In this document: piece by piece, positions 1 through 9,214 of the stretch | How positions within the stretch are numbered: the first letter of the stretch is position 1 | How the letters are laid out: the number at the start of each line of letters is the position of its first letter | Source: Myxococcus stipitatus | Lineage (GTDB): Bacteria; Myxococcota; Myxococcia; Myxococcales; Myxococcaceae | Assembly (NCBI RefSeq): GCF_038561935.1 | Contig: NZ_CP102770.1 | Span: 7,874,001 to 7,938,000, forward strand | Length of the DNA: 64,000 nucleotides | Direction: 5' to 3' | Program-made: the position numbers and the translations under genes | The notes under the pieces: generated by a model | Seen by the model: only the letters and a program-made list of their open reading frames with translations | The model's database searches: none | What the model was told of the DNA's origin: nothing

Positions 1-1169
1 ATTTCGTCCTGACGCTCCTGCAGCGCGGGCATGCGCACGGGCAGCACGTTGACGCGGTAGTAGAGGTCCTCGCGGAAGCGGCCCGCGCGCACCTCCGCGT
101 GGAGGTCCGCGTTGGTGCCGATGATGAAGCGCACGTCCGCCTGGCGCTCACCGGTGCCCTCGCCCAGCGGACGGTAGCTCCGGGACTCCAGCAGGTGCAG
201 AAGCCCCGCCTGCGCCTTGAGCGACAGCTTGTCGATTTCGTCGATGAACAGCGTGCCGCCGTCCGCCCGAGCCACGCTGCCGGGCGCGTCGCGCACCGCG
301 CCGGTGAAGGCGCCCTTCTTCCAACCGAAGAGCTCCGCCATCTGGAGGTCCTCGGGCACCGTCACCAGGTCCAAGGTCTCGAAGGGCTTGCCCCGACGGT
401 TGGAGCGCTCATGGCACCAGCGCGCCAGCCGGGACTTGCCCGCGCCCGTCGCGCCGCTGATGAGGATGGTCTCGTCCTGCAGCGCGAACACGCGAAGGAT
501 GGGCAGGAGCTCCGCCATGGAGCGGCCCACCACGGGCAGGAACTCATCCACCTCCGGCGTGGCCACCGGCCGCTGCGGCAGGCCCGCCAGATACGGCGCG
601 GCCACGTCCGCGAGGAGCTGGAGCTGCTCACCCGCCTCGCGCCAGACGAACTCCTGCCCCATGGCCGCGAGACAATCCGCCTCCAGGGAGATCATCCCCT
701 CGATGCTTCCGCCCGGCGTGCGCAGCGGGAGCACACAGACGTGCGTCGCGTGCCGGCCGAGGAAGCGCTGACGGCTCTCATTGCTGTGGAAGCCCGCGAG
801 TCCCGGGTCTCCCGTCACGGGCGCGTCCGGCGCGTGCGGCTGGACGGTGCCCACATTCACGTCGATGGACACGGCGCACCGGTGCTCCACCACCGCGCGC
901 CACGCCGTGGCCGACGTGAAGAACGGCGTGCCCACACTGGCGTCCGTAATCTCGGTTGAACCCACATCCAGCGCCGCCAGGCGCCGATAGGCTTCACCAG
1001 GGCGTAAGTGGACAATGCCGCGAAGCACCCGGGCCCGGGCTGCGTACCGACTGGACGCAACCGCCTCTTGAGCCACGGCCAACATGCGCTTCAATGTGGT
1101 GGCGGCCGCCGTCTCGAAATCCTTCGCCCCCCGCAGCGCGCTCATGAGCTGCGGCATCTCCTGGTGCAT
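1..1169 (-). CDS. Sigma-54-dependent transcriptional activator (5' part, runs off left edge)
   Basis: About 389 N-terminal codons are visible. A GAF-like sensory region (about residues 30-190) is followed by an AAA+ ATPase with Walker A GATGAGKS near residue 239, the sigma-54 contact loop GAFTGA near 286 and Walker B GGTLFIDEID near 304. These are the defining motifs of bacterial enhancer-binding proteins, which remodel sigma-54 RNA polymerase. The DNA-binding C terminus lies outside the window. The start at 1169 is chosen because GGAGG sits 7 bases upstream; an in-frame ATG at 1193 has no such site. The gene is divergent from the kinase at 1483, and such pairs are common in myxobacterial signalling. 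The signal sensed cannot be told. Confidence 0.93.
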   Translation of the reverse strand, partial: MHQEMPQLMSALRGAKDFETAAATTLKRMLAVAQEAVASSRYAARARVLRGIVHLRPGEAYRRLAALDVGSTEITDASVGTPFFTSATAWRAVVEHRCAVSIDVNVGTVQPHAPDAPVTGDPGLAGFHSNESRQRFLGRHATHVCVLPLRTPGGSIEGMISLEADCLAAMGQEFVWREAGEQLQLLADVAAPYLAGLPQRPVATPEVDEFLPVVGRSMAELLPILRVFALQDETILISGATGAGKSRLARWCHERSNRRGKPFETLDLVTVPEDLQMAELFGWKKGAFTGAVRDAPGSVARADGGTLFIDEIDKLSLKAQAGLLHLLESRSYRPLGEGTGERQADVRFIIGTNADLHAEVRAGRFREDLYYRVNVLPVRMPALQERQDE

Positions 1170-1482: not shown

Positions 1483-4400
1483 ATGCTCCCAGCTCCTATG
1501 ACAGCGGCATCGAGGCTCCAAAGCCTCCCCGGGGTGGGTGCGAGGCTGGGGCCCTACGAGCTCCTCGAGGTCCTCGGCCAAGGGGGCATGGGCGTTGTCT
1601 ATCGAGGGTGGGACCCGGCCACCGGCGAGCCCGTCGCGCTGAAGACGGTGCGCGCGGCCAGCGAGGTCCCCCTGGCCAGCATCCGTCGGGAAATTCACGC
1701 ATTGCGACGTTTGAGGCACCCAGGTGTGGTGCGCATCGTCGCGGAAGGCGTGACGGATGGCCTGCCCTGGTACGCGATGGAGCTGCTCCGGGGACAGACG
1801 CTGCGCAGCGCGACCACCGCCCCACCACCGGGTCCTCTGGATGCGGCGCGATTGCGCGAGACGCTCCTCGTGATGCGCCGGTTGTGCTCGGCGCTGGCCT
1901 TCCTTCACGCCAACGGGCTGGTGCATCGGGACTTGAAGCCGGAGAACGTGTTCGTCCGGCCGGACGGCACTCCCGTCCTCGTGGACTTCGGCATCGCCGC
2001 GCGCTTCGGTGGCTCGCGGGGACGAGAGACGCTCGACGTCAGCGGCGCGGTGGTGGGCAGCGACACGTACATGGCGCCCGAGCAACTGCGTGGCGATTAC
2101 GTGGACGCTCGCGCGGACCTCTATGCGCTGGGGTGCATCCTCTACGAGCAGCTCACCGGCAGACCGCCCTTCATCCCTGGACGCGAAGGGCCCCTGCCGC
2201 ATCAGCACCTGCACCTCGCGCCCGTGCCTCCGTCCCTGCGGGTCGAGGGCCTTCCCGCGACACTCGACGCGCTGGTGCTGAAGCTGCTCGCGAAGCGGCC
2301 TCAAGAGCGACCGGGCTACGCGGAGGATGTCTCGGCGGTGCTGGAGTCCTTGGGTGCGAGCGAGGGCGAGGAGCGTGTCACCGCCGGGCCCCGGACGCCG
2401 GCCTACCTCTATCGCCCGGACCTCGCGGGGCGAGTGGGTGAGCTGGGCAAGCTGCTGGCCGCGCTGGACGCCGCGGACCGAGGACAAGGGGGCCGCGTCT
2501 TCCTCGGCGGAGAGAGTGGTGCGGGCAAGACGCGGCTCGCACTGGAGCTCGCGTCGGAAGCGGCGTGGCGGCGCATGGCGGTCGTCACCGGTGAGTGTGT
2601 CCCCGTGGGCATGGGCGGCCTGGAGCTGCACGCGGCGCCACTGCATCCCCTGCGTCCGCTGTTGCTCGCAGTCGCGGACCGATGCAACGAGCGAGGCGCG
2701 GAGGAGACGCTGCGGCTCCTGGGGCCACGTGGAGGTGTGCTGGCCGCGTATGAGCCCTCCCTGTCCCAGCTCCCTGGCCAGCGAGAGCAACCCGAGCCCC
2801 CTCCCCTGCCCGCGCCCGAGGCGCGCCAGCGAGTGCTGTCCGCGCTGAGGGACACCCTGCGCGCCTTCGCGGAGGTGCAGCCGCTGCTCCTGGTGCTGGA
2901 TGACCTCCAGTGGGCGGATGAATTGACGGTGAGCTTCCTCGAGGAGCTGGATGCGCGGCATCTCGCGTCGCGCCCCGTGCTGCTGGTGGGCACGTACCGC
3001 ATGGATGAGATGGGGGAGTCCCTGCGCGCCGTGGTCAGTGCACCCGACGCGGTGCGCGTGGAGGTGGGCCGGCTGGATGCAACCAGCGCGGGGAAGATGG
3101 CGCGCGGCATGCTCGCGCTGCGCGAGGTGCCCGGTCCCTTCGTGGACGCACTGGTGCGGGAGACCAGCGGCAATCCCTTCTTCATCGCCGAGTACCTGCG
3201 CGCCGCCATCGACGCGGGCCTCCTCTTTCGCGCGCCGTCGGGCGAGTGGCTCTTCGAGGCACAAGGCAGCGCGGGCAGTCGTCCCCTGCCGCTCCCCGGC
3301 AGCATCGCGGAGCTCATCGAACGCCGACTGGCCGACCTGGGCGCGGACGGACGCACGCTGGCGGAGGTGGCCTCCGTGCTCGGTCGGGAGCTGGATGGAG
3401 AGCTGCTCCTCGCCACCGCCGCGCTGCCGGAGAGTGCGGGACTGGAGGCCGTGGAGGAGCTCCGCCGAAGACAGGTCCTCGAGGAGTCCGGCAACGGGCG
3501 GCTGCGCTTCGTGCACGACAAGCTGCGCGAGGTGGCCTACGCGCGCATCGACACCTCGCGGCGCCGTGCGCTTCATCACCGGTGCGCCGAAGGGATGGAG
3601 CAGCGCGACGTGGGAACAGCGCCCGGGCACCTGCCGCATGCCGCGGGCCTCGCGCATCACTGGTCTCGCGCGGAGGTGCCGGACCGGGCCAGCCGCTGGT
3701 TCGCGCGTGCGGGTGACGCGGCGCGTGCGGCCTACGCCAACGGAGACGCCATCACCTTCTATGAAGCCGCGGTGCGCGAAGCCGCGGCGTCCGAGCTGAA
3801 CGCGCATGCGTCCCCACCGAACGCGCCCCCACTCCTCCTGGATGGCGTCTGGGAAGGGCTCGGCGAAGTGCTCGCGCTCACCGGGCGGCAGGACGATGCG
3901 CGCCAGGCATTTCAGGAAGCCCTGGCACGAATCGAGCAAAGCCAGCGCGTCCGTCGCGCCAACGTCCTCCGGAAGGTGGGCAAGTCCTTGCAGACGCACC
4001 ATCAGAATGAGGAAGCGCTGCGCATCTACGCCCAGGCTCAAGCCGAGCTGGGCCCGATGCCCGACAACGTCTCCTCCACCCCCGGGCACGTCGAGGCCGC
4101 GTGGTGGCATGAGTGGGTTCAGCTCCAGGGCGAGCGCATCACGGTTCATTACTGGCTGGCGCAGCTCGATGAGATGCGCGCGCTGGTCGAAGGTGTCCGC
4201 CCGGTGATGCGGGCCCATGGCACGCCCCTTCAGCGTGCGCGTTTCTTCAACTCGCTGGTCCAGATGCAACTGCGCAGCGAGCGTTATCAAGCTTCAAACG
4301 AAACCGTGGCCCACGCCCGGGCCTACGCGGAAGCCGCGCTGGAGTCAGAGGGGGACGCGGAACATGCGGGAGCCCGGTGCGTGGTCGCCATGGTGTTGCT

Positions 4401-4938
4401 CTTCCATGGCGCCCTGGACGAAGCCCAGTCCTGGATGGAGGAGTCCTTGCGGGCAGCGGAGCGGCTCGGTGATGTGACCTTGCAGACGCGCTGCCTCACG
4501 TACCTCACCGTCATCCTCCGACTGCGCGGACAGGTGAAGGCGGTGGACGAGTCCTCCGCGAGAAGCCTCGAGCTCGCCAGCCGCGCCGGCATGGCGGACT
4601 ACGCGGGGGCCGCGCACGCCCATCGCGCCTGGGTGGCCTGGAGGGCGCAGGACCTCGCCCAGGCCCGAGAGGAAGCCACCGAGGCGCTCCGGCTGTGGCA
4701 ATCCCTCTCACTCGTCTATCCGTTCCAGTGGCTGGCGCTCTGGCCCCTGCTCGCCGTGGAGCTGGAGGCGGGCCGCGAGTCGGCGGCGTTGGAACATGCT
4801 CGCGCGATGCTCGCGACACAGCAGCAGCGGCTCCCGGAGGAGCTCCTGCAATCGCTGCGAGCGGCGCTGGAGCAACCGGACACACGAAGCGCACTGCTCC
4901 AGGCGAGCGCGACGGCGCGACAGCTCGGCTACCTGTAG
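1483..4938 (+). CDS. Ser/Thr protein kinase fused to AAA ATPase and helical repeats (PknK-like)
   Basis: A 1151-residue cytoplasmic signalling protein. Residues about 20-290 are a Hanks-type kinase with glycine loop GQGGMGVV, catalytic loop HRDLKPENV near 148, DFG near 168 and MAPEQ in the activation segment. A P-loop NTPase follows (GESGAGKT near 344, Walker B-like LLLVLDDLQWADE near 468), and the rest is helical, TPR-like sequence. This kinase-ATPase-repeat order is the PknK/COG3899 arrangement, in which ATPase and repeats are thought to bind partners or ligands. An in-frame ATG at 1498 is an alternative start. The gene lies 62 bases upstream of the hypothetical-YcaO-TfuA operon and could regulate it; that link rests on position only. 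Confidence 0.93.
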   Translation: MLPAPMTAASRLQSLPGVGARLGPYELLEVLGQGGMGVVYRGWDPATGEPVALKTVRAASEVPLASIRREIHALRRLRHPGVVRIVAEGVTDGLPWYAMELLRGQTLRSATTAPPPGPLDAARLRETLLVMRRLCSALAFLHANGLVHRDLKPENVFVRPDGTPVLVDFGIAARFGGSRGRETLDVSGAVVGSDTYMAPEQLRGDYVDARADLYALGCILYEQLTGRPPFIPGREGPLPHQHLHLAPVPPSLRVEGLPATLDALVLKLLAKRPQERPGYAEDVSAVLESLGASEGEERVTAGPRTPAYLYRPDLAGRVGELGKLLAALDAADRGQGGRVFLGGESGAGKTRLALELASEAAWRRMAVVTGECVPVGMGGLELHAAPLHPLRPLLLAVADRCNERGAEETLRLLGPRGGVLAAYEPSLSQLPGQREQPEPPPLPAPEARQRVLSALRDTLRAFAEVQPLLLVLDDLQWADELTVSFLEELDARHLASRPVLLVGTYRMDEMGESLRAVVSAPDAVRVEVGRLDATSAGKMARGMLALREVPGPFVDALVRETSGNPFFIAEYLRAAIDAGLLFRAPSGEWLFEAQGSAGSRPLPLPGSIAELIERRLADLGADGRTLAEVASVLGRELDGELLLATAALPESAGLEAVEELRRRQVLEESGNGRLRFVHDKLREVAYARIDTSRRRALHHRCAEGMEQRDVGTAPGHLPHAAGLAHHWSRAEVPDRASRWFARAGDAARAAYANGDAITFYEAAVREAAASELNAHASPPNAPPLLLDGVWEGLGEVLALTGRQDDARQAFQEALARIEQSQRVRRANVLRKVGKSLQTHHQNEEALRIYAQAQAELGPMPDNVSSTPGHVEAAWWHEWVQLQGERITVHYWLAQLDEMRALVEGVRPVMRAHGTPLQRARFFNSLVQMQLRSERYQASNETVAHARAYAEAALESEGDAEHAGARCVVAMVLLFHGALDEAQSWMEESLRAAERLGDVTLQTRCLTYLTVILRLRGQVKAVDESSARSLELASRAGMADYAGAAHAHRAWVAWRAQDLAQAREEATEALRLWQSLSLVYPFQWLALWPLLAVELEAGRESAALEHARAMLATQQQRLPEELLQSLRAALEQPDTRSALLQASATARQLGYL

Positions 4939-5000: not shown

Positions 5001-5651
5001 ATGGTGGAGCGATACTCGTACATCTTCTTCAGGCCGGAGCGGGTGAACATCCTGGAAGGCTTCACCACGAACCTCGTGGTGATGGGCGTTCCCATGCACC
5101 GCCCCGGCAAGGTGGAGAACGTGACCAGCCGGGTCACCTTCCACGTGAAGGGCCCCGAAGGCGCCATCTCCATCGTCAATCAGCCGGACACCTCCTTCGT
5201 GCAGGTGAAGGGCGTGCGCTCCGAGCCCGCCCCTTCGCTCCTCTACGCCACGCTGAAGACCCCGGATGCCAACTGGCCCCAGCTCGAGGCGAAGGCCTTC
5301 GTCACGGTGGACGAATCGGACCTGCTCCTCTTCGCTCCGGATGGCCACGTCTACTGGGTGACGACGGAGATGTGGATGAAGGCGGAGAAGTTCCCCCTCG
5401 ATTCCAAGCGCCTGAATCCGGCCCTGCACACGCTGCTTCGGAATGAAACAGTGGTGGCCAACATCCCCAACATCCCGTATCCCGACGAGCAGACCGCCCA
5501 GGGTTCCGCTCCTCCTGATTCGAGGAGGGCCGAGCCCATCACCTGCTTCCTGCTCAACCTCAACAGCATCCTCCTCAGCTACACCCCCAGCACCCAGCTG
5601 CGCCCCGCCGAGCAGGACCCCAGTCCTCCCATTCCCGGCACCGAGCCCTGA
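5001..5651 (+). CDS. Conserved-looking hypothetical protein, first gene of the YcaO-TfuA operon
   Basis: A 216-residue soluble protein that I do not recognise; it has no signal peptide, membrane segment or clear motif. It is rich in beta-strand-like hydrophobic patches and ends in a proline-rich tail. It contains a single cysteine (near residue 177, in ITCFLLNLNS). GAGGTG precedes the ATG by three bases. Its TGA stop overlaps the ATG of the YcaO gene (TGATG at 5649-5653), so the two are almost certainly co-translated. It might be a partner, carrier or the protein substrate of the YcaO-TfuA enzymes; nothing in the sequence decides between these. Confidence 0.82.
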   Translation: MVERYSYIFFRPERVNILEGFTTNLVVMGVPMHRPGKVENVTSRVTFHVKGPEGAISIVNQPDTSFVQVKGVRSEPAPSLLYATLKTPDANWPQLEAKAFVTVDESDLLLFAPDGHVYWVTTEMWMKAEKFPLDSKRLNPALHTLLRNETVVANIPNIPYPDEQTAQGSAPPDSRRAEPITCFLLNLNSILLSYTPSTQLRPAEQDPSPPIPGTEP

Positions 5652-6916
5652 TGCGCACAGACTCCGTGGACTCCCCTGTCGTCGGCGCCGCTCCCGGTAC
5701 CGCCAAGCACTTCCGCCAAGGCACCCACCGGACCGTCTCCCCCGAGGAGACCCTGGAGCGTGTGCGACGACTGATGCCCGTCCTCGGCATCACCCGCATC
5801 GCCAACGTCACGGGCCTGGATACCATCGGCATCCCCGTGGTGATGGTGACGCGCCCCAACGCGCGCTCGCTGGCGGTGTCCCAGGGCAAGGGGCTCACGC
5901 TCGCCGCCGCGAAGGCGTCGGGGCTGATGGAGTCCGTGGAGGGCTATCACGCCGAGCACATCACCCTGCCCCTGAAGCTGGCCACGTACAACGAGCTGCG
6001 CTTCCGCACGCCCGTGGTCGACGTGGCGGGGCTGCCTCGCCTGTCGGTGAGCCTGTTTCATCCCAACTGGCGCATGTTGTGGGTCGAGGGCGTGGACCTG
6101 TTGGGTGGCGGCCCGCTGTGGCTGCCGTTCGACCTGGTGCACACCGACTTCACGCTGCCCCTTCCCACTGGCAGTGGCGCGTTCCTCATGAGCAGCAATG
6201 GGCTGGCCTCGGGGAATCATGTCCTCGAGGCCACGCTGCATGGCCTGTGTGAAGTGGTGGAGCGGGATGCCTCCGCGCTCTGGCATGCCCGAGGCGAGAA
6301 GGGGCAAGCGGGGACGCGGCTGGACCTGTCGACGGTGGATGACCCCGCCTGCCGCGAGGTGCTGGAGACCTACGCACGGGCAGGCGTGGCCGTGGGCGTC
6401 TGGGAGACGACCAGCGACGTGGGGGTGCCCGCGTTCACCTGTTACATCGTCGACCAGGAGCGCGAGTCGCTGAGGCCCGTCGCCGTGGCGGGGGGCATGG
6501 GCTGTCACCCCTCGCGCGGCGTGGCGCTGCTGCGCGCGCTGACGGAGGCGGCGCAGAGTCGGCTCACGCGCATCTGCGGTGCTCGCGATGACCTGCATCG
6601 CAAGGCGTATGAGGAGGCTCGCGAAGGGGTGGACGCGGACCGGCTCCGGACGCGGCTGCGGGAGGAGAAGCCCGTGCGCCGCTTCCAGGAGGCACCGCAT
6701 CAAGACGCGAGCACCCTGGAGGAAGACCTCGGGTGGGTGCTGGCGAAGCTGCGCATGGCGGGTGTGTCGCAAGTCGTCGCCGTGGAGCTGACGAAGCCGG
6801 AGCTGGGCATCCCCGTGGTGCGTGTGGTGGTGCCTGGACTGGAGCCCACGCATGAGGCGCCGGGCTATGTCCCCGGGCCGCGCGCGCAGCGCGTCATGCG
6901 AGGAGGTGCGTCATGA
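5651..6916 (+). CDS. YcaO-family ATP-dependent backbone-modifying enzyme (TfuA-associated)
   Basis: A 421-residue YcaO protein. YcaO enzymes use ATP to activate a peptide-bond oxygen, giving azolines or, with sulfide and a TfuA partner, thioamides. Visible family features are the segment SQGKGLTLAAAKASGLMESV (about residues 76-95), the ATP-site helix ending in VEGYHAEH, and the later segment LEATLHGLCEVVERDA. There is no fused E1-like or docking domain, which fits stand-alone TfuA-dependent YcaOs. It overlaps the genes on both sides (1 base upstream, ATGA downstream). No short precursor peptide gene is seen next to it, so the substrate may be a protein or be encoded elsewhere. Thioamidation is inferred from the TfuA neighbour. 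Confidence 0.92.
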   Translation: MRTDSVDSPVVGAAPGTAKHFRQGTHRTVSPEETLERVRRLMPVLGITRIANVTGLDTIGIPVVMVTRPNARSLAVSQGKGLTLAAAKASGLMESVEGYHAEHITLPLKLATYNELRFRTPVVDVAGLPRLSVSLFHPNWRMLWVEGVDLLGGGPLWLPFDLVHTDFTLPLPTGSGAFLMSSNGLASGNHVLEATLHGLCEVVERDASALWHARGEKGQAGTRLDLSTVDDPACREVLETYARAGVAVGVWETTSDVGVPAFTCYIVDQERESLRPVAVAGGMGCHPSRGVALLRALTEAAQSRLTRICGARDDLHRKAYEEAREGVDADRLRTRLREEKPVRRFQEAPHQDASTLEEDLGWVLAKLRMAGVSQVVAVELTKPELGIPVVRVVVPGLEPTHEAPGYVPGPRAQRVMRGGAS

Positions 6917-8265
6917 AGGTGTTCATCTTCACCGGCCCCACACTGCGCCCCGAGGAGGCTCGCCAGGAGCTGGAGGCCGTGTACCTGCCTCCCGTGCAGC
7001 AAGGAGACATCTACCGGGCGACGCTCGAGAAGCCGGTGGCGCTGGGCATCATCGACGGCTTCTTCGAGCATGTGCCCGCCGTGTGGCACAAGGAGATCCT
7101 CTGGGCCATGGCGGAAGGCATCCACGTCTTCGGCGCCGCGAGCATGGGGGCGCTGCGAGCCTCGGAGCTGACCGCCTTCGGGATGGAGGGCGTCGGCGCC
7201 ATCTTCGAGGACTTCCATCGCGGGGTGCTGGAGGACGACGACGAGGTGGCCGTGGCGCACGCGAGCGCGGAAGACGGCTGGCGCCCCCTGTCCGAAGCCA
7301 TGGTGAACATCCGCGCCACGCTGTCGGCCGCACACGCCGCGGGCGTGGTGAGTGACGACACTCGGGGCGGGCTCGAGCGACTGGCCAAATCGCTGTTCTA
7401 CGTGGAGCGCGCGTGGCCGACCTTGCTGACGCGGGGAGCTCGCGAAGGACTTCCCGTGGCGGAGCTGGCGGCGCTCAAGGACTGGCTGCCACGCGGCCGG
7501 GTGGATGCGAAGCGCGCGGATGCCGTGACGATGTTGCGGACGATTCGGGAGCGCCTCGACGCGGGGCTGCCGCCGAAGGAGACCCGCTTCCCCTTCCAGC
7601 ACACGGATGCGTGGGAGGAAGCCCGGCGGCGCGCGAGCAGACTGCCCTTGCGGCCCACCGCGAATCCCTCGGAGGGAGTGGCTTCGGAGGCCCTGCTCGA
7701 TGAGCTGCGCCTTCGCGGCGGGATGAGGGACGCACGGCGGGCCAGCATGGCGCGTGCGCTCGCGGTGGAGGAGGCCCGGAGGCTGGGACGCGTCCCGAAT
7801 GCGGCGGAGCTCCATACGACGGAAGCCCTGCTGCGCCAGGAGCGGGAGCTCACCCCCGAGACCTTCGAGCGGTGGAAGTCCGAGCAACACGTCGACGACG
7901 TCGCGCGCCTGCTCCGGGATGAATCACACGTGAGATGGGTGGAGACCCTCTTCGAGCCCGATGTGATGCGCCACCTGGCGGACCATCTGCGGCTGACGGG
8001 TCAGTACGGTGAGCTGCTCCACCGCGCGCGCGACAAGGAGACGGTGCTCGCGGAAGCCGGGCTGTCGGCACCTCGACTCGAGGACGCGGGCATCACCGAG
8101 CCGGCGCTCTGGGCCTGGTACTACGAGGAGCATCAGGGCCGGATGGTGCCCGTGGCGCTCGAACAGGCCGCGCGGGAAGAGGGCTTCCCGGATGTGGCGT
8201 CCCTCCGCAGGGCCGCGCTGCGAGAACTCTGCTACGTCCTCGCGAAGGCCGGCGCCACGGGCTGA
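6913..8265 (+). CDS. TfuA-like protein with long C-terminal extension
   Basis: A 450-residue protein whose first 130 or so residues match the TfuA core: an opening strand VFIFTGPTL, then LPPVQQGDIYRA, GIIDGFF and the segment HVFGAASMGALRASEL with a conserved glycine/alanine-rich turn. TfuA proteins partner YcaO enzymes in thioamide formation, as in methanogen McrA thioglycine and some thioamidated peptides. The remaining 300 residues are helical and charged with no motif I can name, making it about twice the length of a minimal TfuA. ATGA overlap with the YcaO gene indicates translational coupling. A hairpin terminator (8276-8300) closes the operon. Confidence 0.88.
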   Translation: MKVFIFTGPTLRPEEARQELEAVYLPPVQQGDIYRATLEKPVALGIIDGFFEHVPAVWHKEILWAMAEGIHVFGAASMGALRASELTAFGMEGVGAIFEDFHRGVLEDDDEVAVAHASAEDGWRPLSEAMVNIRATLSAAHAAGVVSDDTRGGLERLAKSLFYVERAWPTLLTRGAREGLPVAELAALKDWLPRGRVDAKRADAVTMLRTIRERLDAGLPPKETRFPFQHTDAWEEARRRASRLPLRPTANPSEGVASEALLDELRLRGGMRDARRASMARALAVEEARRLGRVPNAAELHTTEALLRQERELTPETFERWKSEQHVDDVARLLRDESHVRWVETLFEPDVMRHLADHLRLTGQYGELLHRARDKETVLAEAGLSAPRLEDAGITEPALWAWYYEEHQGRMVPVALEQAAREEGFPDVASLRRAALRELCYVLAKAGATG

Positions 8266-8314: not shown

Positions 8315-9214
8315 TCAGCGCGCCTTGCGAGCCGGCTCCTTCGCGGCGGACTTCTTCACCGAGGCTCGCTTCTTCGCGGGCTTCGCCGCCTTGGCGGGAG
8401 CCTCCGGCGGAGGCGATGCGCTCGCCGCGCCAGGCACCGGCTTCAGCACGAAGACGCGGTCCAACCGGCGGCTGTTGCGCGTCTCGGGAGCCTCCAGGTT
8501 GTAGTCGAAGTTGTACTCGGCCACGACGTGCAGCCCCGCGTCCCGGAAGAGCTTGCGCGCCTGGGCTCCGTCGTAGGTGCGGAAGAACCACGTGGTCTCG
8601 ATGAGCCAGTCCTTCCCGGGCCCGGTGATGCGCAGCCGGTTGCGCATCGGTGAGCGGCGGGCGCGGCGGTCGGGAGTGCCCTCGTGCGTGTTGCAGACGA
8701 CCTTGTCCTTCCCGACCTTCCCCAGCCAGCGCTCGTGCTCGGGCGTCGTCCTCGCGTAGTCGGTGAGGTGGAAGCCCAGCACGTAGACACCGTCGGGCTT
8801 GAGCAGCCGCCGGGTCCCCTTCAGGTGCGCGAGCGCCGCCGCCTCGCTGTCGAGATACCGGAAGGTGGAGACCAGGTTGTGCGCGACATCCACCTGCCCC
8901 TCCAGCTCGGGTGAGAAGAACTCCTCCATGCGGGACGGAGACAGCTTCACCCGCCGACGCTCGGCGGGCGTCAGCCGCTTGCGCGCATGGGCGAGCATCG
9001 CCTCGGAGATGTCGTAGCCGGTGACCTTCAGCCCGCGACGGGTGGCCTCCTCGACCAACCGCCCCGCGCCACACGCGGGCTCCAACCACTTTGAGCCGCC
9101 CGTGCCATGGCGTGCGCTCAGCGCCTGGAGGAAGTCCACCTCGCGCACGGTGTCCGTGCCGAAGATGGCCTCGTAGTACTCCGGGTGCTCATACCAGTCC
9201 GTGCGTTTTTCCAT
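8315..9214 (-). CDS. Class I SAM-dependent methyltransferase with basic C-terminal tail
   Basis: A 299-residue protein with a Rossmann-type SAM fold: motif I EPACGAGRLVEE near residue 44, an acidic strand end in VTGYDISEAML, then VDVAHNLVSTFRYL. The substrate cannot be inferred. The last 30 or so residues are a lysine/alanine/proline-rich tail (PAKKRASVKKSAAKEP), resembling histone H1-like tails and suggesting contact with nucleic acid or another polyanion. It converges on the TfuA gene across a terminator, so membership in the YcaO operon is unlikely. Confidence 0.88.
   Translation of the reverse strand: MEKRTDWYEHPEYYEAIFGTDTVREVDFLQALSARHGTGGSKWLEPACGAGRLVEEATRRGLKVTGYDISEAMLAHARKRLTPAERRRVKLSPSRMEEFFSPELEGQVDVAHNLVSTFRYLDSEAAALAHLKGTRRLLKPDGVYVLGFHLTDYARTTPEHERWLGKVGKDKVVCNTHEGTPDRRARRSPMRNRLRITGPGKDWLIETTWFFRTYDGAQARKLFRDAGLHVVAEYNFDYNLEAPETRNSRRLDRVFVLKPVPGAASASPPPEAPAKAAKPAKKRASVKKSAAKEPARKAR

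What the first reader, a model, noticed from the sequence alone, without database searches (positions are those of the whole stretch)
5001..8265. Hypothetical-YcaO-TfuA operon without a precursor peptide
Sequence: three overlapping genes, one unrecognised, one YcaO, one TfuA with a 300-residue extra C-terminal region. Known: YcaO-TfuA pairs install thioamides on peptides or on McrA. Inference: no small precursor gene lies beside it, and the cell is not a methanogen, so the target may be the first gene's product, another cellular protein or a peptide encoded elsewhere. This is the best candidate for an undescribed system in the window.
Basis: partly seen in the sequence, partly recalled or inferred. 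Interest (0 to 1): 0.72.

Follow-up and report, generated by a model that had tools for sequence, protein, structure and literature searches.

The report
Myxobacterial YcaO-TfuA cassette with likely substrate
Some myxobacteria carry a four-gene cassette in which two enzymes of a kind known to swap an oxygen for sulfur in a protein backbone sit beside a protein whose short tail is kept unchanged while the rest of it varies, which makes that tail the likely, still untested, target.

Summary
In detail: three coupled genes, X (5001-5651), YcaO (5651-6916) and TfuA (6913-8265), preceded by a same-strand Ser/Thr kinase gene (KIN, 1534-4938). The reading "no precursor" needs changing: X itself is precursor-like. 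It has a fast-evolving N-terminal body resembling Leptospira Ig-like domains, a short conserved element (DxLxxAPDGxxY...AN-P) and a tail, TCFLLNLNSI, identical in 17 of 17 copies. The same element plus a CxLLNLxSI-like tail, sometimes in tandem, occurs in otherwise different genes of related YcaO-TfuA loci: 32 of 37 YcaO rows of this clade, against 0 of 19 more distant ones. The kinase is in 31 of 31 fetched loci with the motif and 0 of 25 without. In four genomes of the same genus the cassette is missing at the same site.

Best explanation: X is the dedicated protein substrate and YcaO-TfuA modifies its tail, most likely by backbone thioamidation, with the kinase controlling or taking part. 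That X is the substrate is inferred from gene comparisons, the chemistry from enzyme families; nothing is shown biochemically. Six paper searches listed no description that I recognised. Rated a new variant of a known kind.

The parts
1534..4938 (+). KIN: Ser/Thr kinase + AAA_16 ATPase + TPR protein (1134 aa from this start; the ORF can start at 1483)
   Evidence: Pkinase 8.5e-43, AAA_16 1.7e-22, TPR_12 4.4e-6 (below Pfam's cut-off); HRDLK, DFG, APE and a Walker A motif present; found in 31 of 31 fetched motif loci and 0 of 25 others
5001..5651 (+). X: proposed substrate protein, 216 aa
   Evidence: profile of X matches 17 of 195 Myxococcota genomes, own included; other rows 31-93% identical to the window copy
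5001..5300 (+). N-terminal body of X (about residues 1-100), Ig-like (Lig type), fast-evolving
   Evidence: profile hit LigA 8gyr_B E 1.1e-5, best stretch profile positions 12-57; Foldseek first two hits LigA 5.2e-4 and LigB 1.2e-3, TM-score by query 0.33 and 0.35; model of moderate confidence
5307..5375 (+). recognition-like element, residues 103-125 (VDESDLLLFAPDGHVYWVTTEMW)
   Evidence: alignments A1, A2, A3; profile-profile match 97.7%, E 1.3e-12
5541..5570 (+). TCFLLNLNSI, residues 181-190, proposed modified segment
   Evidence: invariant in all 16 rows of A1 and also in L026
5651..6916 (+). YcaO, the only YcaO match in this genome
   Evidence: closest solved sequence MJ1094 (6pe3) E 2.7e-39
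6913..8265 (+). TfuA
   Evidence: solved TfuA 6xp8 E 2.2e-41 over residues 3-215
7573..8262 (+). C-terminal extension of TfuA, absent from 7 shorter TfuAs in motif-bearing sister loci
   Evidence: A6 alignment; lengths; weak SurA_N_3 similarity in 2 of 10 members, not in the window's
3..1169 (-). sigma-54 activator (cut by the window edge); syntenic neighbour, present also where the cassette is missing, so not counted as part of it
   Evidence: Sigma54_activat 6.9e-50 in the 574-aa orthologue from L020

Best explanation
The four genes KIN-X-YcaO-TfuA form one accessory system. X is the dedicated protein substrate. The DxLxxAPDGxxY...AN-P part is recognised by the enzymes and the probably disordered C-terminal tail TCFLLNLNSI is fed into YcaO. 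YcaO would activate a backbone amide of the tail with ATP; TfuA would release sulfide from a thiocarboxylated ThiS-type carrier; the product would be a thioamide in the tail. The variable Ig-like body of X would carry the modified tail to its site of action. KIN senses a signal and either gates expression or phosphorylates X. Shown: gene structure, family membership of the enzymes, homology of the X domain across sister loci, linkage, co-occurrence and joint absence. Inferred: X as substrate, tail as site, thioamide as product, role of KIN.
For: (1) Outside the three closest relatives X is 31-55% identical to the window copy, while YcaO and TfuA of the same loci are 65-90%; yet TCFLLNLNSI is identical in 17 of 17 copies, window included. 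(2) The element plus tail recurs in sister loci: hhalign 97.7%, E 1.3e-12, between alignments that share no rows; there it forms one unit in 115-122 aa proteins and tandem units in others, as in precursors. (3) Motif regex: 38 hits in 1.72 million six-frame residues against a shuffled mean of 1.0, maximum 3 in 20 shuffles. With the looser regex, 36 of 39 hits are in genes on the strand of, and within 5.2 kb of, a TfuA; one (L026) is at a contig end after KIN; two lie inside YcaO frames. (4) 32 of 37 YcaO rows of 58-100% identity have a motif gene in their locus, 0 of 19 at 30-46%; the 37 form one clade, 100/100. (5) KIN in 31 of 31 motif loci, 0 of 25 others. (6) Of 25 places hit by profile A2 in 195 genomes, 24 lie within 5.3 kb of a TfuA match on its strand and one (G121) is at a contig end; 10 of the 25 are not training rows. 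(7) Among ring- and thioamide-type models YcaO scores highest for the thioamide one: TIGR03266 242.7 bits, SagD 124.8; closest solved sequence MJ1094. (8) ThiS family: 3 places in the genome.
Against: No biochemistry. Neither the McrA YcaO nor the McrA TfuA equivalog cut-off is reached (242.7 of 365; 213.3 of 235.2 bits). Five of 37 clade rows lack a motif gene: L081 is at a contig edge, L082 looks decayed, and L068, L072 and L074 have a small protein with a similar element and another tail. In the second units of L075, L077 and L078 the Cys is not at its usual place: one residue later in L075 and L078, absent in L077. The tail is unusually fixed at the codon level too, which selection on the protein alone does not explain. 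No exporter or protease is among the Pfam hits of the genes tested, and I see no signal peptide by eye (no tool was run). Profile A2 recovers the trio's X in only 6 of its 17 genomes and not in the window's own.
Confidence: 0.55

Rival explanations
1. X is an adaptor, not the substrate: its conserved C-terminal part docks on YcaO-TfuA and its variable Ig-like body recruits another protein, which is the one modified.
For: The body varies while the C-terminal part is constant; Ig-like folds often bind partners (general knowledge).
Against: In sister loci the partner is little more than one or two element-plus-tail units (118 aa in L069, 122 and 115 aa in L073; tandem pairs in L069, L070, L075, L077, L078, L084), with little room for a recruiting body. 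A docking motif would not need tandem copies (inference).
Confidence: 0.17
2. YcaO makes a thiazoline or another ring at the tail Cys rather than a thioamide.
For: A Cys stands first in the tail in all 16 rows of A3, and ring formation on Cys is a common YcaO chemistry (established knowledge).
Against: A TfuA accompanies the motif gene in 30 of 31 motif loci, the other (L026) being cut by a contig end; the YcaO scores higher for the thioamide-type model; no E1-like or other ring-forming partner is among the Pfam hits of the cassette; three second units have no Cys at that place.
Confidence: 0.12
3. X is only a co-transcribed partner (for example a structural protein or a regulator of KIN); the real substrate is encoded elsewhere in the genome.
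For: X has no biochemical link to YcaO; the codon-level invariance of the 30 nt could mark an RNA- or DNA-level role of that stretch.
Against: Profiles A1 and A2 gave no place away from a TfuA in 195 genomes, other than G121's X at a contig end; motif gene, KIN and enzymes occur and are absent together.
Confidence: 0.12

Closest known systems
McrA-glycine thioamidation pair (YcaO-TfuA of methanogens; TIGR03266, NF033432)
   Same: Adjacent YcaO and TfuA; these are the best-scoring NCBIfam models; a protein rather than a short peptide is the likely target
   Different: Below both equivalog cut-offs; no McrA is expected in a myxobacterium (not searched for here); extra TfuA domain; kinase and X in the operon
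Thioamidated RiPP clusters (thioviridamide, thiovarsolin type)
   Same: YcaO-TfuA next to a gene with a conserved element and a short C-terminal segment
   Different: X is 216 aa with an Ig-like body; the tail is the most conserved part rather than variable; no peptidase or exporter among the Pfam hits of the genes tested
E. coli YcaO acting on ribosomal protein uL16 (PMC13063428, passages read)
   Same: YcaO modifying a protein that stays in use as a protein (proposed here, shown there)
   Different: No TfuA there; the substrate is a ribosomal protein read by its surface; here a dedicated, co-encoded, patchy accessory protein
TOMM system kinase/cyclase fusion (TIGR03903)
   Same: KIN matches it at 260.7 bits; that such kinases sit in YcaO-type clusters is recalled, not tested
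   Different: Far below its cut-off of 705.75

Membership tests
thioamide-forming YcaO-TfuA pair | complete YcaO domain with the nucleotide/Mg-region residues aligned to a thioamide-type YcaO | tested here: met
   PF02624 positions 1-325; TIGR00702 YcaO domain over its cut-off, 212.8 of 75.65; alignment to MJ1094. Which residues are catalytic is recalled
thioamide-forming YcaO-TfuA pair | adjacent TfuA with the ASMGALRA stretch | tested here: met
thioamide-forming YcaO-TfuA pair | product contains a backbone thioamide | not testable with these tools
   needs mass spectrometry
McrA-thioamidation pair (TIGR03266 / NF033432) | scores above the curated equivalog cut-offs | tested here: not met
   242.7 of 365 and 213.3 of 235.2 bits
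RiPP (peptide natural product) | short precursor with leader and core encoded in the cluster | tested here: inconclusive
   X is long, but sister loci encode 115-122 aa single-unit proteins; here the tail is the conserved part
RiPP (peptide natural product) | protease and exporter in the cluster | tested here: not met
   none among the Pfam hits of KIN, X, YcaO, TfuA and the two genes to the right; genes further away were not scanned
uL16-type YcaO | E. coli YcaO model; no TfuA beside it | tested here: not met
   NF040716 32.2 of 700 bits; TfuA present

The most novel reading that the evidence does not exclude
A family of bacterial proteins built from varied bodies (Ig-like in the window) and a backbone-modified C-terminal tail: a dedicated, kinase-linked protein modification system in myxobacteria, with tandem-unit and single-unit versions, in which YcaO-TfuA thioamidates a co-encoded protein that is kept as a protein.
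Probability: 0.35. Interest if true: 0.82.

Novelty: new variant of a known kind. Interest (0 to 1): 0.62.

Why it matters
PMC13063428 (passages read) calls uL16 the second example, after MCR, of a protein thioamidated by a YcaO, and suggests that further protein substrates remain undiscovered. This cassette supplies a substrate candidate, a 10-residue site and a compact two-enzyme test. It could also have escaped searches for short precursor peptides (RiPPER was used in PMC8120280), since the candidate is a 216-aa protein; RiPPER's size limits are recalled, not read here.

Tried and rejected
Rejected: a hidden small precursor gene (gaps of 62 and 49 nt only). The weak X hit in G182 (E 7.7e-4): not recovered by profile A1, and no YcaO or TfuA match in the 18 kb fetched around it. 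The sigma-54 activator as a cassette member: it stays where the cassette is missing. A sigma-54 promoter before KIN: the window has fewer matches than chance (41 against 68.9), and the one in the gap (1340-1354, minus) has 2 mismatches. Anti-phage defence: PADLOC gave kinase-domain matches for KIN and weak matches, which I take for coiled coil, for one sister-locus protein; nothing for X, YcaO, TfuA. Viral relatives of X: none of 51 candidate stretches confirmed.

Led nowhere: the TfuA model (pLDDT 42.8) was too poor to use; the extension's best PDB match has E 0.044. The X model is only moderate (mean pLDDT 53.1, five rows). Profile A2 has no PDB match below E 0.2.

Limits: genes in fetched loci come from my own simple caller, not a standard one. 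Loci share ancestry, so 31 of 31 and 32 of 37 are not independent events. The trio loci were fetched because they have X, so they cannot test the link; the loci fetched from the TfuA search give 16 of 21 YcaO rows of 58% or more with a motif gene. One search listed only part of its matches, and I fetched 40 regions from that list. The motif regex was written after seeing the motif. The KIN threshold (45% identity, over 700 aa) leaves out weaker kinase or ATPase matches of about 28-34% in several motif-less loci. Some short TfuAs may be broken long ones: the tblastn matches in G081 and G080 run through 3 stops and that in G064:C329 through 1.
Full report
OBSERVATION. The three genes are present as described: X 5001-5651, YcaO 5651-6916, TfuA 6913-8265. 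They overlap by one and four bases, so translation is probably coupled (inference). YcaO and TfuA match their Pfam families at E 1.1e-85 and 6.4e-47; X matches none in Pfam, NCBIfam or PHROGs. A same-strand gene 62 nt upstream, KIN, encodes a Ser/Thr kinase with an AAA_16 region and a weak TPR match, with the usual kinase motifs and a Walker A motif. The YcaO is the only one found in this 10.17 Mb genome.

CONSERVATION OF THE TRIO. Protein X finds 18 of 195 Myxococcota genomes; the profile of X finds 17, without the weak G182 hit. In the searched set, 15 of 27 genomes of the window's genus have it. In 15 of the 16 fetched X loci (L020-L035) KIN-X-YcaO-TfuA stand in that order; the sixteenth (L026) ends at a contig edge after X. 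The tool warns that records near the window's genome may be left out. A viral scan confirmed none of 51.

WHAT X IS. Outside its three closest relatives X is 31-55% identical to the window copy, while YcaO and TfuA of the same loci are 65-90%. Invariant positions cluster in DxLxxAPDGxxY, in NE and AN-P (148-156) and in the run T181-I190, TCFLLNLNSI; L026 has it too, making 17 of 17 copies. The N-terminal body resembles Leptospira Ig-like domains: LigA E 1.1e-5 by profile, and LigA (5.2e-4) and LigB (1.2e-3) are the first two Foldseek hits, with TM-scores by query of only 0.33 and 0.35. The model has moderate confidence in the first 100 residues (ten-residue means 59-84) and very low confidence from residue 128 on, which fits a disordered tail but also a thin alignment of five rows.

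SISTER LOCI. A TfuA search of the phylum found 109 of 195 genomes with a match. I fetched 40 regions from its list. Loci of the nearest clade carry, beside YcaO, different proteins with a similar element and a tail of the type C-x-[LIVM]-[LIVM]-[ND]-[LM]-x-x-[ILFVMT]. Some are single units of 115-122 aa (L069, L073), some tandem pairs (L069, L070, L075, L077, L078, L084), some have longer bodies; two of these (L080, L083) have weak, below-cut-off Pfam matches, one of them to an Ig-like fold. Comparison of the X alignment with the unit alignment, which share no rows, gives 97.7% and E 1.3e-12 over 70 columns.

SPECIFICITY. In six-frame translations of the fetched loci and the window the motif occurs 38 times against 1.0 on average after shuffling. 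With the looser regex, 36 of 39 hits are in genes on the strand of, and within 5.2 kb of, a TfuA; one (L026) is at a contig end after KIN; two lie inside YcaO reading frames (L083, L101). Leaving out the YcaO and TfuA frames themselves, 32 of 37 YcaO rows with 58-100% identity to the window's have a motif gene in their locus; 0 of 19 rows with 30-46% do. The five without are L068, L072, L074 (a small protein with a similar element but another tail), L081 (contig edge) and L082 (only a scrap resembling the tail). The 37 rows form one supported clade (100/100) of a 55-row tree, one short row having been dropped; the label needs 4 changes against 17.9 after shuffling. KIN (45% identity or more, over 700 aa) is present in 31 of 31 motif loci and in 0 of 25 motif-less ones, L036 set aside because it holds no YcaO. 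L068, L072 and L074 have a more distant kinase or ATPase, 29-31%, and weaker kinase matches occur in some others. In 195 genomes the unit profile A2 hits 25 places in 15 genomes; 24 are within 5.3 kb of a TfuA match and on its strand, and the other (G121) is at a contig end. Fifteen are training rows and ten are not. A2 recovers the trio's X in 6 of 17 genomes, not in the window's own.

PRESENCE AND ABSENCE. In G136, G122, G119 and G127 the window's sequence is matched up to about 1342-1355 and again from about 8437-8439, with only about 160-270 nt between; the cassette is absent. G114 keeps fragments of KIN only. The sigma-54 activator on the left stays in all five, so I do not count it as part of the unit. 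L082 has a YcaO and TfuA but no KIN or recognisable X; L087 has a TfuA but no recognisable YcaO, KIN or X. The unit is thus present or absent as a whole; the G114 remnant indicates loss there, while for the other four the direction is open. A patchy unit speaks against a housekeeping target (inference).

ENZYMES AND CHEMISTRY. The YcaO scores 242.7 bits with the McrA-thioamidation model and 124.8 with the SagD ring-forming model, below both cut-offs, and passes the general YcaO domain model. Its best solved relative is MJ1094 (E 2.7e-39); TfuA's is 6xp8 (E 2.2e-41). The YcaO nucleotide region and the TfuA ASMGALRA stretch are aligned; which residues are catalytic is recalled. The genome has three ThiS-family places, so a sulfur carrier may be available; PMC13063428 (passages) says thioamide-forming YcaOs outside sulfide-rich settings tend to use a ThiS-type carrier and TfuA. 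From these I infer thioamidation of the X tail, with a lower chance of ring formation. The TfuA extension seems dispensable for the pairing, since 7 TfuAs in motif loci (242-278 aa) lack it, though some of these may be broken long forms; two of ten members of the extension alignment resemble SurA_N_3 weakly, which may hint at substrate holding.

AN UNEXPLAINED POINT. The tail is nearly fixed in codons too: mean codon entropy 0.15 bits over the ten positions, against 0.75 at other invariant X positions and an expected 0.59 from invariant YcaO codons (0 of 100,000 resamplings as low); against TfuA codons 0.8% were as low, Cys and Asn counting as zero there because TfuA has no invariant ones. Rows share ancestry, so these are not probabilities. 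Preferred codons, gene conversion or an RNA-level role could explain it. Sister loci use other codons.

KNOWN WORK. Six searches on TfuA/YcaO with myxobacteria, kinase, immunoglobulin-like and related terms listed no paper that I recognised as describing this family. I read passages of five (PMC8120280, PMC13063428, PMC6511847, PMC10676384, PMC9231227), plus the abstract and section 12 of the first; the others listed I saw as listings only. PMC8120280 names Corallococcus among the genera of its dominant proteobacterial TfuA families; the passages did not let me tell which locus that is. Supplements could not be read, so the family may be listed there unrecognised. The TfuA paper PMC8084935 is not held.

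VERDICT. A real, coherent, accessory four-gene system with a good substrate candidate; chemistry and function untested. New variant of a known kind, interest 0.62.

Noticed in passing
L089, L090, L091, L092, L093, L103, L105, L106: A second, more distant YcaO-TfuA pair (YcaO 32-34% identical) recurs in the window's family without any motif gene; by eye, several of these loci share neighbours that look like a V4R-type protein, a thioredoxin-like gene and a sigma-factor-like gene (no family search run). The window's own genome has only one YcaO match, so it lacks this pair.
   Followed up: partly
window 5541-5570: The 30-nt stretch encoding the tail is nearly fixed at the codon level across 17 copies.
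   Followed up: partly
L068 5475-5756, L072 6260-6505, L074 5638-6141: Small proteins that keep a DDG/EDGxxYR-like element but have another tail (ending SFRAR in L072 and L074), in loci that also lack KIN of the window type.
   Followed up: partly
L069 5305-6045, L070 4322-5122, L075 11683-12810, L077 2120-3277, L078 2546-3655, L084 4397-5191: Further proteins beside the tandem-unit genes, with RNVSR-like or LMCDWEA-like sequences near their ends; possible extra substrates or partners. The L069 one has no Pfam family.
   Followed up: no
L071 9552-10865: A gene that looks like a transposase by eye lies between the motif gene and YcaO.
   Followed up: no
L166 (G114): Fragments of KIN at the cassette site with X, YcaO and TfuA gone.
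   Followed up: yes
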